DNA of 64,000 nt, from NCBI GenBank assembly GCA_013115145.1, contig JAAPAO010000002.1:124001-188000 (forward strand), written 5' to 3'. Position 1 is the first letter of the stretch; every line of letters starts with the position of its first letter. Positions 16,388-29,452 of this stretch are shown here, one piece after another. The DNA is from Perkinsus chesapeaki. Its lineage: Eukaryota > Perkinsozoa > Perkinsida > Perkinsidae. The position numbers and the translations under genes are program-made. Under the pieces are notes generated by a model. The model made no database searches, was not told the origin of the DNA, and saw nothing but the letters and a program-made list of their open reading frames with translations.

Positions 16388-19300
16388 TCATGCGAAAGAG
16401 TGCCACGAATCCTCGACTGGACGTCCATCGGGGGAGCTTTCGTCACCAGCTTCGGGAACTGATATGGCTAAGCGTATGCGCTCAGGTGTAGCTGGGCATA
16501 CGAGCTGGAAATGCTTCCGGTTACCTCTCGCAGCATAAATTGCCTCCTTGATAGCATAATAGACCTGCAGAGATAAAGGTCAGGAGTACCGAGGATCACG
16601 CGAGTGAAAGGAATGGAGAACAAACCAGAGAATGTCCTTACGCTTGCACCTCCAAAGAGGGGAGGCTCACCGACTGCCTTGCTGGCTCGAATAGTTGGAC
16701 CGCTAGTCCTATCGTAAAGCGCGACACGAAAGTCGCAGGGAATGTCATCGAGGGAAGGGATCTTGTATAGTCCGGGCCCCTAAGAGAACACCTCAACTCG
16801 AGGATAAAGAATTAAACCACGCTCACCTTAGTGATCAGCCTGCCCTGCTTATCATAGACTAGTTCTTCCATACAAAAGAGACCATATCCCTGCATGAAGG
16901 CACCTTCAATCTGACCGATGTCGATCGCTGGATTTATGGACTTCCCAACATCGTGGACAATATCAACACGTAACTGAACAGCGTATGGACGAGTATTGCG
17001 TATGTTTCGCTCTTACAACCCGTGTTTCACCAGTGAGCACGTCAACTTCAACTTCCGAAGCCGCCGCTCCATAGGTGTAGTAGTAGAAGGGCACAGAATT
17101 GAAAGTATTAACCTAAGCTCCCGGTAGGTAAGTGCAAGTTATACCAGCAGAAAGACGCGCCGTTCCCAACGTTACCTCTTTCTTAGACCAATCGGCCCCC
17201 GCGATTTCTGGGGTCCTGTAGAATCCCACAGCGCTGAGACATTTGCGATCGAACCTACGACAAGGAAGGAGCTATCCACATTGGCACTAACAAGTCTAAT
17301 ACCACGCTTTCGTGGCAGCGCTCGCAAGCCTCGCCTGGGGATCGCTGATGGAAGAGTCCTCGTACGCCTGAGACCGTGAGATCAGTACTCGACCATCGAC
17401 CCTCTGCCGACCTTGATAGTTTCCTTTAATTGCCGGCAGGCATCAACCGCGGCATTAGCATTGAGGTCAGTTCCACTTGAAGCCGCCGTTGGCACTCCAT
17501 TGGGAGCTCGGCTGGTGTTGGCCTCAGATATGTGAATCGCGTCAACAGGGATGCCTAGCTCGCTGGCGACAACCTGTATAGAACGCTGCTCTACCGCAAG
17601 TTGAAAACGGCTTACTTGTGACACTTTAGTATTCAATCCTTGTCCCATCTCAACGCCGACGTGACAAACTTGGACAGACCCGTCCTTTTGAAGGGTTATT
17701 AGTGCGGTAGCTTGGTTAAGATGTGTAGCAGTGAACGATATACCGTACCTGACCAGTACAGGTAATAGCGCGAGATAGCTGGGCAAACCATCTACCGTAT
17801 AGGGACAGCAGCAATTCCGCGCTTCAGGTAGGAGTTCTTCTTGTTGTATTCGACGATTTCCACTCGACGCTTGTCAAATTCCGACTCCTTCATTAATTTT
17901 ATCCACATGTCTTCTGAAGGGACCTGGAAAGCAATGGTATGGAACACCTGCGGGATTGGGTCATCTTTTAGCCTTGCCTCATCCCCAAGATGATGATTGT
18001 AATGTGTCAAGTTAGCGGCGCCTTGTGGACCACAAGCCCAGTTAGCAGCTTCGAGCTCTTCTCGTCTGATTCCGAGCTCACAAGCGGCATGCTCGAACAT
18101 CGCCTGAAAAAGCGACTGTTAGACAATAAGACATTCAAGCAAGCATACCTCCGCAACAGCCTGTCCCTGAGGTCCTCCAAATCCACGGAATGCTGTATTG
18201 CTCTCTATATTGGTCTTAGCCAAGCGTCCTGATAGTGAAGTTACACTACGGATATGAGATGCTGACGGAGTTCTGACCAGTGACTCGGACATTTCGCACG
18301 AAACTAGCATTCGTCATATGCATCATAGCTCGGTTCAGCACAGGTTCGGACAGGTCGTGAGAGTAGCCAGCGTTCGCCTAGAGTTGACCTTAGCTTCTGC
18401 GTAGGACTGGGCAACTCACGTATAAGTCTACATCAGCGGCGACCAACTTCCTGTCGCTCCTACGAACGGCGACAGTATAATCAGCGAGGAAAGCGTGTCG
18501 CTTTCCACTGTTAGCCATGTCTACATCGCGGTCCATTTGGAAACTAATCAAAGAGGCGTTCGAAACTTGACTCGATTTGGATGCCACCCACCGAGCAGGT
18601 CGGTTAAACTTGACGGCTGCAAGAGCCGCATAGGAGGCCAAAATGCAAGATCGAGACTCCTTACCGCCAAATCCGCCGCCTGAGCCGATAAACAAATTCG
18701 ACCAGAAGCAAAACCAACGCACCTCACCTATTCTCTTCGTTCGGACAACAACTCGATTTAGCGGTATCCCCAGAACTTCGGCAATGTGCATCTGGGTCTC
18801 ATGGGGGTGCTGCGTTGACGAAAATACTTCGACTTCAGTGCCCCCATCAGCTGGCACGGCTCGGGCACCCTAAACAATAGAGCTAATGTGGCCGTTCTCT
18901 CATGAAGTTGAGACATTACGGAAAAAGTTTTATTACATTGGTTTCAAAATAAAAATGTTCTTGCCCGGCCATTTTGAAACGGCCCTTGACAACAGCAAAT
19001 TCGTCTGGTCGAGATAAACAGTGTTCGATAACCTCCTCGATATTAGCGCCCATGTCAAGGTCAATCACCTTATGGATGCACGCGGAGTCGCCGCCACCTG
19101 GACAAGACCAACGTCCTAATAGCGGGGCTCAGTCTAGAAATTACCAACAAAAAGGAGCTCATGGAAGCTCTTCTCCCTAATAGCATCCTCGATACTGACA
19201 ATAGGCGGCGGACGCTCTTGCGAGTATGTAACCTAGGATCACGAGACCAACTGCAATATCGGCGCACGATCTGCTGTATATTACCTTCACGGCTCTGGCC

Positions 19301-29100: not shown

Positions 29101-29452
29101 GATGTACCGCCTGAGCAATGTTTCAACTCTACTGGATGAGCCATAGATACCGAGTACCTTTCCCGTAGCGAGATCTGTCGTGTAAATGCTGACAGTACAG
29201 GCTCCGCAGCCCCCTTCTCCACAAGCCAGCTTCGTGCCACAGAGTCCTATGCTACGAAGCCACTCCAGCAACGTAAACTCTGGATCCACATTCTCTAGCA
29301 CAGTGCACCTAGTGACGTGATTCAGCTCGACAAGTCGAATCAAACTACCGTCCATTCAGCTTCAAAGAAGGATAGCTGTCGGCCGACTCTTCGAAATTCA
29401 ACAGCAATGTCTTTCGCCGACGCTGCAAGCTTTCGTCAGATGCAAAGTTCAT
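23182..29452 (-). CDS. Xanthine dehydrogenase family paralogue 2, altered substrate pocket
   Basis: It has the same domain order as its tandem neighbour. The start is ATG 29452 (MNFASDESLQRRRKTLLLNF), much shorter at the N-terminus than copy 1. 2Fe-2S I is LACGEGGCGACTVSIYTTD (29230); 2Fe-2S II is QCGFCTPGFVMS (28810) and NLCRCTGYRPI (28670). The FAD domain has FASEHIRNFATLGGNICTA (27940) and RRRQDDLAIVNCAIG (27520). Molybdopterin domain: VDYVDDAPASFNELFL (26900), STQDPHQTQMHIAEVLG (25800), GGGFGGKQTRSC (25660), VLKKALLHVTN (25310), SNTAFRGFGAPQAQA (25150), FGCAYDEPFLNQ (24660), GVEMGQGVDAKV (24560), DIVHDVGKSINP (23750), AVGEPPLFGAF (23440). It ends in WHAFA and TAA at 23182. Cofactor motifs and the catalytic Glu are intact, but pocket positions E802, R880, F1009 and T1010 (bovine numbering) read Q, K, Y and D. 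The substrate is therefore probably not xanthine; which one is unknown. Confidence 0.85.
23661..23775. repeat. Near-identical tract B shared by the two XDH genes (copy in XDH 2)
   Basis: This is the partner of 16862-16976, with three mismatches in 115 bp by eye. Confidence 0.85.
28621..28712. repeat. Near-identical tract A shared by the two XDH genes (copy in XDH 2)
   Basis: This is the partner of 21589-21680, with one mismatch in 92 bp by eye. Confidence 0.85.

What the first reader, a model, noticed from the sequence alone, without database searches (positions are those of the whole stretch)
16388..29452. Tandem XDH paralogues with one redesigned substrate pocket
Copy 1 has the full xanthine pocket. 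Copy 2, right upstream, keeps the Fe-S, FAD, molybdopterin and catalytic-Glu motifs (GGGFGGK, FRGFG, GEPP) but reads GGKQ for GGKE (bovine E802), VLKK for VLNR (R880), and GCAYD for GISFT (F1009Y, T1010D). Q767 and F914 are kept. E802 and R880 orient the purine; F1009 packs on it. Changing all of these while keeping the machinery points to another heterocycle or aldehyde as substrate, in the manner of aldehyde oxidases, which also replaced E802 and R880. The mapping rests on motif alignment and remembered bovine numbering.
Basis: partly seen in the sequence, partly recalled or inferred. Interest (0 to 1): 0.85.

Follow-up and report, generated by a model that had tools for sequence, protein, structure and literature searches.

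The report
Xanthine dehydrogenase twin with rebuilt pocket
A shellfish parasite carries two neighbouring xanthine dehydrogenase genes, and one has a rebuilt substrate pocket whose same unusual residues also arose separately in related enzymes of several animals, which hints at an uncharacterised enzyme activity.

Summary
The window is Perkinsus chesapeaki DNA: copy 1 equals annotated protein P0001 except at three splice choices. Two intact spliced genes: copy 1, 36 exons, 1388 aa; copy 2, 35 exons, 1359 aa; 64.6% identical. In bovine numbering copy 1 reads Q767 E802 R880 F914 F1009 T1010 E1261; copy 2 reads Q767 Q802 K880 F914 Y1009 D1010 E1261.

New: the Q802/K880/Y1009 triple is not private to copy 2. 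Of 205 aligned rows, five have K880, and all five have Q802 and Y1009: copy 2 and proteins from Leptinotarsa, Armadillidium, Mya arenaria and an unnamed source grouping with flies. Each sits beside E/R enzymes; parsimony needs five changes, and an AU test rejects one clade of the four animal rows. All five also have A876 and an acid at 1010 or 1011.

So this looks like a recurrent polar re-wiring of the xanthine pocket, unlike the mammalian aldehyde-oxidase residues. I infer a hydroxylase of another polar N-heterocycle. Substrate, activity and expression are untested; no copy-2 orthologue was found among P. marinus or P. olseni proteins.

The parts
23182..29452 (-). Copy 2: XDH paralogue, 35 exons, 1359 aa, Q802/K880/Y1009 pocket
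   Evidence: Spliced model open from ATG to stop, GT-AG introns; pocket states
16388..22453 (-). Copy 1: ordinary XDH, 36 exons, 1388 aa, E802/R880/F1009/T1010 pocket
   Evidence: no residue mismatch to P0001 of Perkinsus chesapeaki, three differences at exon junctions
25579..25666 (-). Copy 2 exon 22: GGGFGGKQ, carries Q802
25259..25358 (-). Copy 2 exon 24: LSQAVLKKALLH, carries A876 and K880 (H884 kept)
25123..25202 (-). Copy 2 exon 25: FRGFG, F914 kept
24537..24669 (-). Copy 2 exon 28: FGCAYDEPFLNQ, carries Y1009, D1010, E1011
25727..25868 (-). Copy 2 exon 21: STQ motif, Q767 kept
23406..23543 (-). Copy 2 exon 34: GEPP, catalytic E1261 kept
28584..28709 (-). Copy 2 exon 6 (second Fe-S motif): near-identical stretch shared with copy 1 exon 6 (21677-21564), likely gene conversion
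   Evidence: Identical runs of 53 and 35 nt; longest run in 1000 codon shuffles 36
23626..23772 (-). Copy 2 exon 33: near-identical to copy 1 exon 34 (16973-16827), likely gene conversion
   Evidence: Identical run of 76 nt; longest run in 1000 codon shuffles 36
28914..28978 (-). Copy 2 exon 4: about 22-residue insert in the Fe-S domain, unlike the copy 1 insert (21974-21899)
   Evidence: 14% identity; the intron after it differs in phase between the copies

Best explanation
Copy 2 is an old, intact paralogue of XDH that predates the split of P. chesapeaki from P. marinus and P. olseni. It keeps the molybdenum-hydroxylase machinery: Moco site, the E1261 base, two 2Fe-2S centres and an FAD domain (shown from sequence). 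Its substrate pocket has moved to a recurrent alternative state: Gln802, Lys880, Tyr1009, Ala876 and an acid at 1010/1011. That state arose at least five times in the relatives seen (shown on trees). Inferred: the carboxylate that xanthine uses at 802 is gone and a new one stands by residue 1010, where Thr normally meets O6 or N7 of the purine. The pocket should then prefer a polar N-heterocycle that offers a hydrogen-bond donor (amino or ring NH) there, for example an aminopurine or aminopteridine, over xanthine at C8. Hydroxylation would proceed as in XDH: Mo-OH attack helped by E1261, then electrons through Fe-S to FAD. The substrate class is a guess (about 0.2 by itself).
For: Intact 35-exon frame sharing nearly all of the copy 1 intron pattern. 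NG86 dN 0.31 with saturated synonymous sites outside the converted exons, so protein constraint persisted. All eight Fe-S Cys and 20 of 22 listed Moco-site residues match bovine. K880 occurs in 5 of 205 rows and always with Q802 and Y1009. Acid at 1010/1011: 5 of 5 against 20 of 200; A876: 5 of 5 against 45 of 200. Five changes by parsimony on 48 chosen rows with the pocket columns left out; a 203-row FastTree agrees on the placements; one clade of the four animal rows rejected, p-AU 4e-4. The animal triple-bearers depart at only 4 to 6 of 228 near-invariant columns, two of them 802 and 880. Thr1010 contacts N7 or O6 of purines and fungal R880-site mutants lose xanthine (PMC5746545, passages). 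A database protein with the triple folds as XDH.
Against: No activity, ligand or transcript data. Copy 2 departs at 28 of 228 near-invariant columns against 18 for copy 1, including an FAD-domain stretch (S356C P357S I358V), so some change is not pocket-specific. E-to-Q and R-to-K are conservative; R310K lowers the rate only 20-fold. The acid is not at one fixed position (D1010+E1011, E1011, E1010, E1011, E1011), and E1011 also occurs in 15 E/R/F rows, so one shared substrate is unproven. The triple-bearer P0057 just passes the NCBIfam cut-off for the xanthine dehydrogenase molybdopterin subunit (849.9 against 849.5 bits). No copy-2 orthologue was found among P. marinus or P. olseni proteins, and copy 2 itself is not in the protein set at the lengths searched.
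Confidence: 0.5

Rival explanations
1. Copy 2 is still a purine hydroxylase for hypoxanthine and xanthine, with tuned kinetics or regulation; the residue set is a workable alternative solution for the same substrates.
For: Lys keeps the positive charge and R310K costs only about 20-fold; E232 mutation costs about 10-fold in rate and binding (PMC9966888). The F914 partner, Q767 and E1261 are kept. P0057 just passes the NCBIfam xdhB cut-off.
Against: P. chesapeaki and Leptinotarsa (P0240) each also hold an E/R/F copy, so a second xanthine enzyme would be redundant there; for the other three triple-bearers I did not establish a second copy. Repeated joint change of five pocket sites is unexpected for neutral drift.
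Confidence: 0.27
2. Copy 2 is an aldehyde or xenobiotic oxidase that arose from XDH, as AOX did.
For: E802 and R880 are both replaced, as in AOX. For copy 2 the NCBIfam mammalian aldehyde oxidase model scores above xdhB (706 against 673 bits), for P0001 the reverse (690 against 704), all below the curated cut-offs. This is weak: the E/R/F protein P0240 also scores higher on the longer aldehyde oxidase model.
Against: Mammalian AOX uses Ala/Val and Tyr/Met at these sites and Lys at the H884 site (PMC3864932, PMC3509653, passages); copy 2 has Gln, Lys and His.
Confidence: 0.1
3. Copy 2 has lost substrate oxidation and works, if at all, as an NADH or oxygen-reacting flavoprotein, or is drifting.
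For: FAD-domain changes S356C, P357S, I358V, R335G and W336V in P0328 numbering; a longer branch than copy 1 since their split (0.42 against about 0.24).
Against: E1261, the Fe-S ligands and 20 of 22 listed Moco-site residues are kept; low dN at saturated synonymous divergence.
Confidence: 0.09
4. Artefact: wrong exon joins, pseudogene or assembly error.
For: No transcript; copy 2 was not found among predicted proteins; intron 4 differs in phase between the copies; six-frame genome search cannot confirm splicing.
Against: Thirty-five open exons, introns GT-AG throughout copy 2, and phases equal to copy 1 at 33 of 34 introns; the pocket codons lie inside exons; the same residues recur in unrelated genomes.
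Confidence: 0.04

Closest known systems
Eukaryotic xanthine dehydrogenase/oxidase (bovine, rat, human XOR)
   Same: Domain order 2Fe-2S, FAD, Moco; Fe-S cysteines; most Moco-site residues; F914; E1261; Q767
   Different: E802Q, R880K, F1009Y, T1010D, S876A, V1011E in copy 2 against bovine
Mammalian aldehyde oxidases (AOX)
   Same: XDH-like architecture, with both purine-orienting residues replaced
   Different: AOX has Ala/Val and Tyr/Met at these sites and Lys at the H884 site; copy 2 has Gln, Lys and His
Fungal nicotinate hydroxylase HxnS (purine hydroxylase II)
   Same: XDH paralogue with changed substrate range; both differ from XDH next to F1009/T1010; both have SG at 1081/1082, but so does copy 1
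   Different: HxnS keeps E802 and R880 equivalents and inserts Ala between F1009 and T1010 (PMC5746545, passages); copy 2 has no insertion and changes 802 and 880
Triple-bearing animal proteins P0057, P0089, P0030, P0106
   Same: Q802, K880, Y1009, A876, acid at 1010/1011
   Different: Separate origins; 1010 varies (A, K, E, T); fewer departures from near-invariant XDH positions than copy 2. None characterised, to my knowledge

Membership tests
XDH superfamily enzyme (single-chain Fe-S/FAD/Moco) | Two 2Fe-2S cysteine sets | tested here: met
   8 of 8 Cys in both copies
XDH superfamily enzyme (single-chain Fe-S/FAD/Moco) | Moco-site residues and catalytic Glu1261 | tested here: met
   20 of 22 listed positions match bovine, including GGFGGK, R912, EMGQ, TAAS, Q1194 and GE1261; 1081/1082 read SG in both copies. 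The position list is recalled
Xanthine-specific XDH | E802 and R880 | tested here: not met
   Q802, K880 in copy 2; met in copy 1
Xanthine-specific XDH | F914/F1009 aromatic sandwich and T1010 | tested here: not met
   F914 kept; Y1009 is aromatic but not Phe; D1010
Xanthine-specific XDH | Score above the NCBIfam XDH cut-offs | tested here: not met
   Copy 2 xdhB 673 of 849.5 bits needed; copy 1 protein P0001 also fails (704), so this does not separate the copies; P0057 passes (849.9)
Aldehyde oxidase | E802 and R880 replaced by the mammalian AOX residues (Ala/Val, Tyr/Met) | tested here: not met
   Replaced, but by Gln and Lys
Aldehyde oxidase | Lys at the XOR H884 site | tested here: not met
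   H884 in copy 2
HxnS nicotinate hydroxylase | Ala insertion between F1009 and T1010 | tested here: not met
   GCAYDEPF, no insertion
Q802/K880/Y1009 set (defined here) | Triple plus A876 plus acid at 1010/1011 | tested here: met
   Copy 2 and four animal rows
Xanthine-specific XDH | Xanthine turnover | not testable with these tools
   Needs enzyme assay

The most novel reading that the evidence does not exclude
The Q802/K880/Y1009 pocket, with A876 and an acid at 1010/1011, is an unrecognised further functional state of XDH-derived enzymes besides xanthine, aldehyde and nicotinate types. It has been reached convergently in an alveolate parasite, a beetle, a woodlouse, a clam and a source that groups with flies (in the first two beside an ordinary copy), and serves one common, still unknown substrate.
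Probability: 0.35. Interest if true: 0.8.

Novelty: new variant of a known kind. Interest (0 to 1): 0.6.

Why it matters
Molybdenum hydroxylases are a textbook case of substrate switching after duplication, but the switches I know of from XDH go to aldehydes or to nicotinate. Here five pocket sites change together, in at least five lineages, towards one polar set. None of the papers listed by my searches (open-access library only, judged by title, start of abstract and the passages read) describes it. That makes a concrete prediction testable in well-studied laboratory XDH enzymes: the triple should change which ring is hydroxylated. It also says that some proteins now named 'xanthine dehydrogenase' in databases may do something else, and gives a simple three-residue flag to find them.

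Tried and rejected
Horizontal transfer from the clam host: P. chesapeaki was first isolated from Mya arenaria (PMC7053492, passages) and the Mya protein carries the same triple and shares GCAY with copy 2. Rejected for the whole gene: copy 2 is 69% identical to copy 1 in the Mo-domain columns and shares its introns, and copy2+Mya as a clade is rejected (p-AU 5.6e-13). A local exchange was not excluded; at 1000-1045 copy 2 matches copy 1 at 32 of 46 sites and Mya at 27 of 46.

A copy-2 orthologue in other Perkinsus: protein searches with copy 2 residues 640-1355 (120 of 7618 hits listed) and with a 434-residue piece (120 of 5349 listed) gave only copy-1 orthologues (P0002, P0003). Unannotated models, or ones shorter than about 240 residues, would be missed.

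Of the 120, three had 34% identity or more over at least 700 residues to the reference XDHs (L019, L044, L096); they have Gly or His at 880. Some distant ones (such as L030) also carry Gln and Lys at 802/880, but in about 30% identical families where the 1009 alignment is unreliable; no NCBIfam model named L030 above its cut-off.

Convergence control: 12 columns show the same derived residue in 3 or more of the 5 lineages, which is not exceptional (300 random quintuples gave 0 to 30). What stands out is two columns at 5 of 5 (802, 880) and three at 4 of 5 (876, 1009, 1011), all in the pocket; a 5 of 5 column appeared in 3 of 300 quintuples and 4 of 5 was the best in 116 of 300. The rows were picked for changes at 802 or 880, so those two columns are partly conditioned. 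The AU groups were named after a tree had been seen.

Genome context: no uricase or nucleobase permease match, a weak MOSC match (E 5e-5, one stop inside), adenosine-deaminase family matches; six-frame search misses intron-broken genes. The nine neighbouring frames scanned gave no purine pathway hint. No coordinates of the predicted structure were available, so no pocket distances were measured.

Full report
WHAT IS THERE. A spliced alignment script and manual junction checks give two complete genes on the minus strand. Copy 2 runs 29452 to 23182 in 35 exons (1359 aa); copy 1 runs 22453 to 16388 in 36 exons (1388 aa). Introns are short (40-60 bases in 26 of 34 for copy 2 and 31 of 35 for copy 1) and GT-AG, with one GC-AG in copy 1; P. 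marinus and P. olseni proteins lack the residues that this intron would encode if retained. Intron phases agree along both genes with two exceptions: copy 2 exon 9 spans two exons of copy 1, and the intron after the variable exon 4 has another phase. The proteins are 64.6% identical over 1357 aligned residues. Copy 1 matches P. chesapeaki P0001 without a mismatch, apart from three splice differences; the source names P0001 'Alternative oxidase', a label that fits neither its Pfam domains nor its sequence. Only these two loci in the 35.4 Mb assembly matched the two Moco-domain families (lower bounds).

THE POCKET. Numbered on Bos javanicus XDH (P0328, 1332 aa), copy 1 has the textbook set and copy 2 has Q802, K880, Y1009, D1010 with Q767, F914 and E1261 kept. 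A876 and E1011 also differ from bovine. All eight Fe-S cysteines and 20 of 22 listed Moco-site residues are as in bovine; 1081/1082 read SG in both copies.

OLD AND CONSTRAINED. Copy 2 branches outside copy 1, P. marinus P0002 and P. olseni P0003 (SH-aLRT 98 for the three, 100 for the four), so the duplication predates those species. Outside the converted exons synonymous differences are saturated (pS 0.78) while dN is 0.31 (NG86). A neutrally drifting copy should by then have lost its 35-exon frame. Two exons are exceptions: identical runs of 76 and 53 nt, longer than any run in 1000 codon shuffles (longest 36), point to gene conversion. They encode the second Fe-S motif and a C-terminal Moco stretch, not the pocket sites.

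RECURRENCE. Three protein searches listed 120 proteins each (332 distinct, out of thousands of hits). I aligned 205 rows: those of 850-1530 aa, plus P0003 and P0201, minus P0001. K880 is in five rows: copy 2, P0057 (Leptinotarsa decemlineata), P0030 (Armadillidium vulgare, which NCBI labels UNVERIFIED_CONTAM), P0089 (Mya arenaria) and P0106 (unnamed). All five have Q802 and Y1009. Q802 without K880 occurs twice (P0201, P0301), and Y1009 without either in seven E/R/Y rows plus P0300 (E/C/Y). Among the 133 shorter or longer rows checked the triple occurs only in P0106. The sister rows compared are E/R/F, except P0257 (E/R/Y) beside Mya. On a 48-row tree of rows I chose, built without the pocket columns, the triple needs five changes; a FastTree of 203 rows (P0201 and P0305 dropped) places the five alike. 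Holding the four animal rows together costs 491 log-likelihood units (p-AU 4e-4). All five have Ala at 876 and Asp or Glu at 1010 or 1011; among the other 200 rows these occur in 45 and 20 (Fisher 7e-4 and 2e-5, which ignore kinship). Fifteen of those 20 are E1011 rows with an E/R/F pocket; the 14 that bear names are, as I recall their taxonomy, Lepidoptera, so the acid alone does not imply the triple. In the animal rows these changes are among very few departures from near-invariant XDH positions (4 to 6 of 228, with gaps of 0 to 63 columns); copy 2 has 28 and copy 1 has 18.

HOW IT SHOULD WORK. In XOR, Glu803 and Arg881 (human) bind and activate purines and Glu1262 is essential (PMC3509653, passages). 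Mutating E232 in R. capsulatus XDH costs about tenfold in rate and binding; R310M costs about 10^4 but R310K only 20-fold (PMC9966888, one passage). Thr1010 meets N7 or O6 of the purine, and A. nidulans mutants at the R880 site cannot use xanthine (PMC5746545, passages). Ser876 and Val1011 are listed among contacts of docked peptides in XO (PMC10742721, passages). From this I infer that copy 2 keeps the chemistry but moves the pocket's carboxylate from 802 to the 1010/1011 wall, shortens the cation, and adds a hydroxyl to one aromatic lid. The likely result is poor xanthine turnover and preference for a ring with a donor group where xanthine has O6 or N7. Candidates are aminopurines and aminopteridines. 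This last step is inference.

WHAT IT IS NOT. It fails the mammalian AOX residue pattern and the HxnS signature, and fails the xanthine-specific residue set while keeping the cofactor features tested. NCBIfam does not settle it: neither copy reaches the XDH or AOX cut-offs, while triple-bearer P0057 just passes the xdhB one. A triple-bearing database protein (P0106, 961 aa) is predicted with mean pLDDT 85 and matches most rat and bovine XOR chains listed at TM 0.92-0.94 and human AOX at 0.89-0.90, normalised to the query, so the fold is unchanged; this adds nothing on specificity, and copy 2 itself was not modelled.

LIMITS. No transcript, enzyme or ligand evidence; sampling of relatives is by similarity, not random; one prokaryote scan was truncated at 120 loci. 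Papers were searched in an open-access library only; none of those listed describes this residue set as far as I read, and the two that hold both 'Perkinsus' and 'xanthine dehydrogenase' are, by title, about thrips and a dinoflagellate.

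Noticed in passing
28709-28584 with 21677-21564; 23772-23626 with 16973-16827: Tracts of near-identity between two otherwise saturated paralogues: likely gene conversion in a Fe-S exon and a C-terminal Moco exon.
   Followed up: partly
21974-21899 (copy 1) and 28978-28914 (copy 2): A small extra exon inserts a fast-changing loop in the Fe-S domain; the copy 1 version is Cys/Gly rich, the P. marinus model P0002 lacks it, and the intron after it differs in phase between the copies.
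   Followed up: partly
17977-17924: A GC-AG intron in copy 1 that the public model P0001 retains as coding sequence; P0002 and P0003 lack those residues.
   Followed up: yes
P0001, P0003: Perkinsus XDH proteins carry the source name 'Alternative oxidase, mitochondrial precursor', apparently a misannotation.
   Followed up: no
Copy 2, FAD domain (exon 9, 28111-27886): Usually invariant ASPIS becomes ACSVS, and R335/W336 (P0328 numbering) become Gly/Val, so electron acceptor use may differ.
   Followed up: no
L044:4955-7243 and L096:2550-4838: Bacterial XDH-like subunits (L044 is titled Bacteroidales) with Q802 and H880, another unusual pocket.
   Followed up: partly
P0201 (Ascophyllum nodosum): Brown-alga XDH-like protein with Q802 and Q880 but F1009.
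   Followed up: no
30052-33804: Long intronless minus-strand frame (1250 aa) that reads like a P4-type ATPase (motif DKTGTLTE seen by eye; family name recalled).
   Followed up: no
49424-50980: Carbon-nitrogen hydrolase domain in a 519 aa frame.
   Followed up: no
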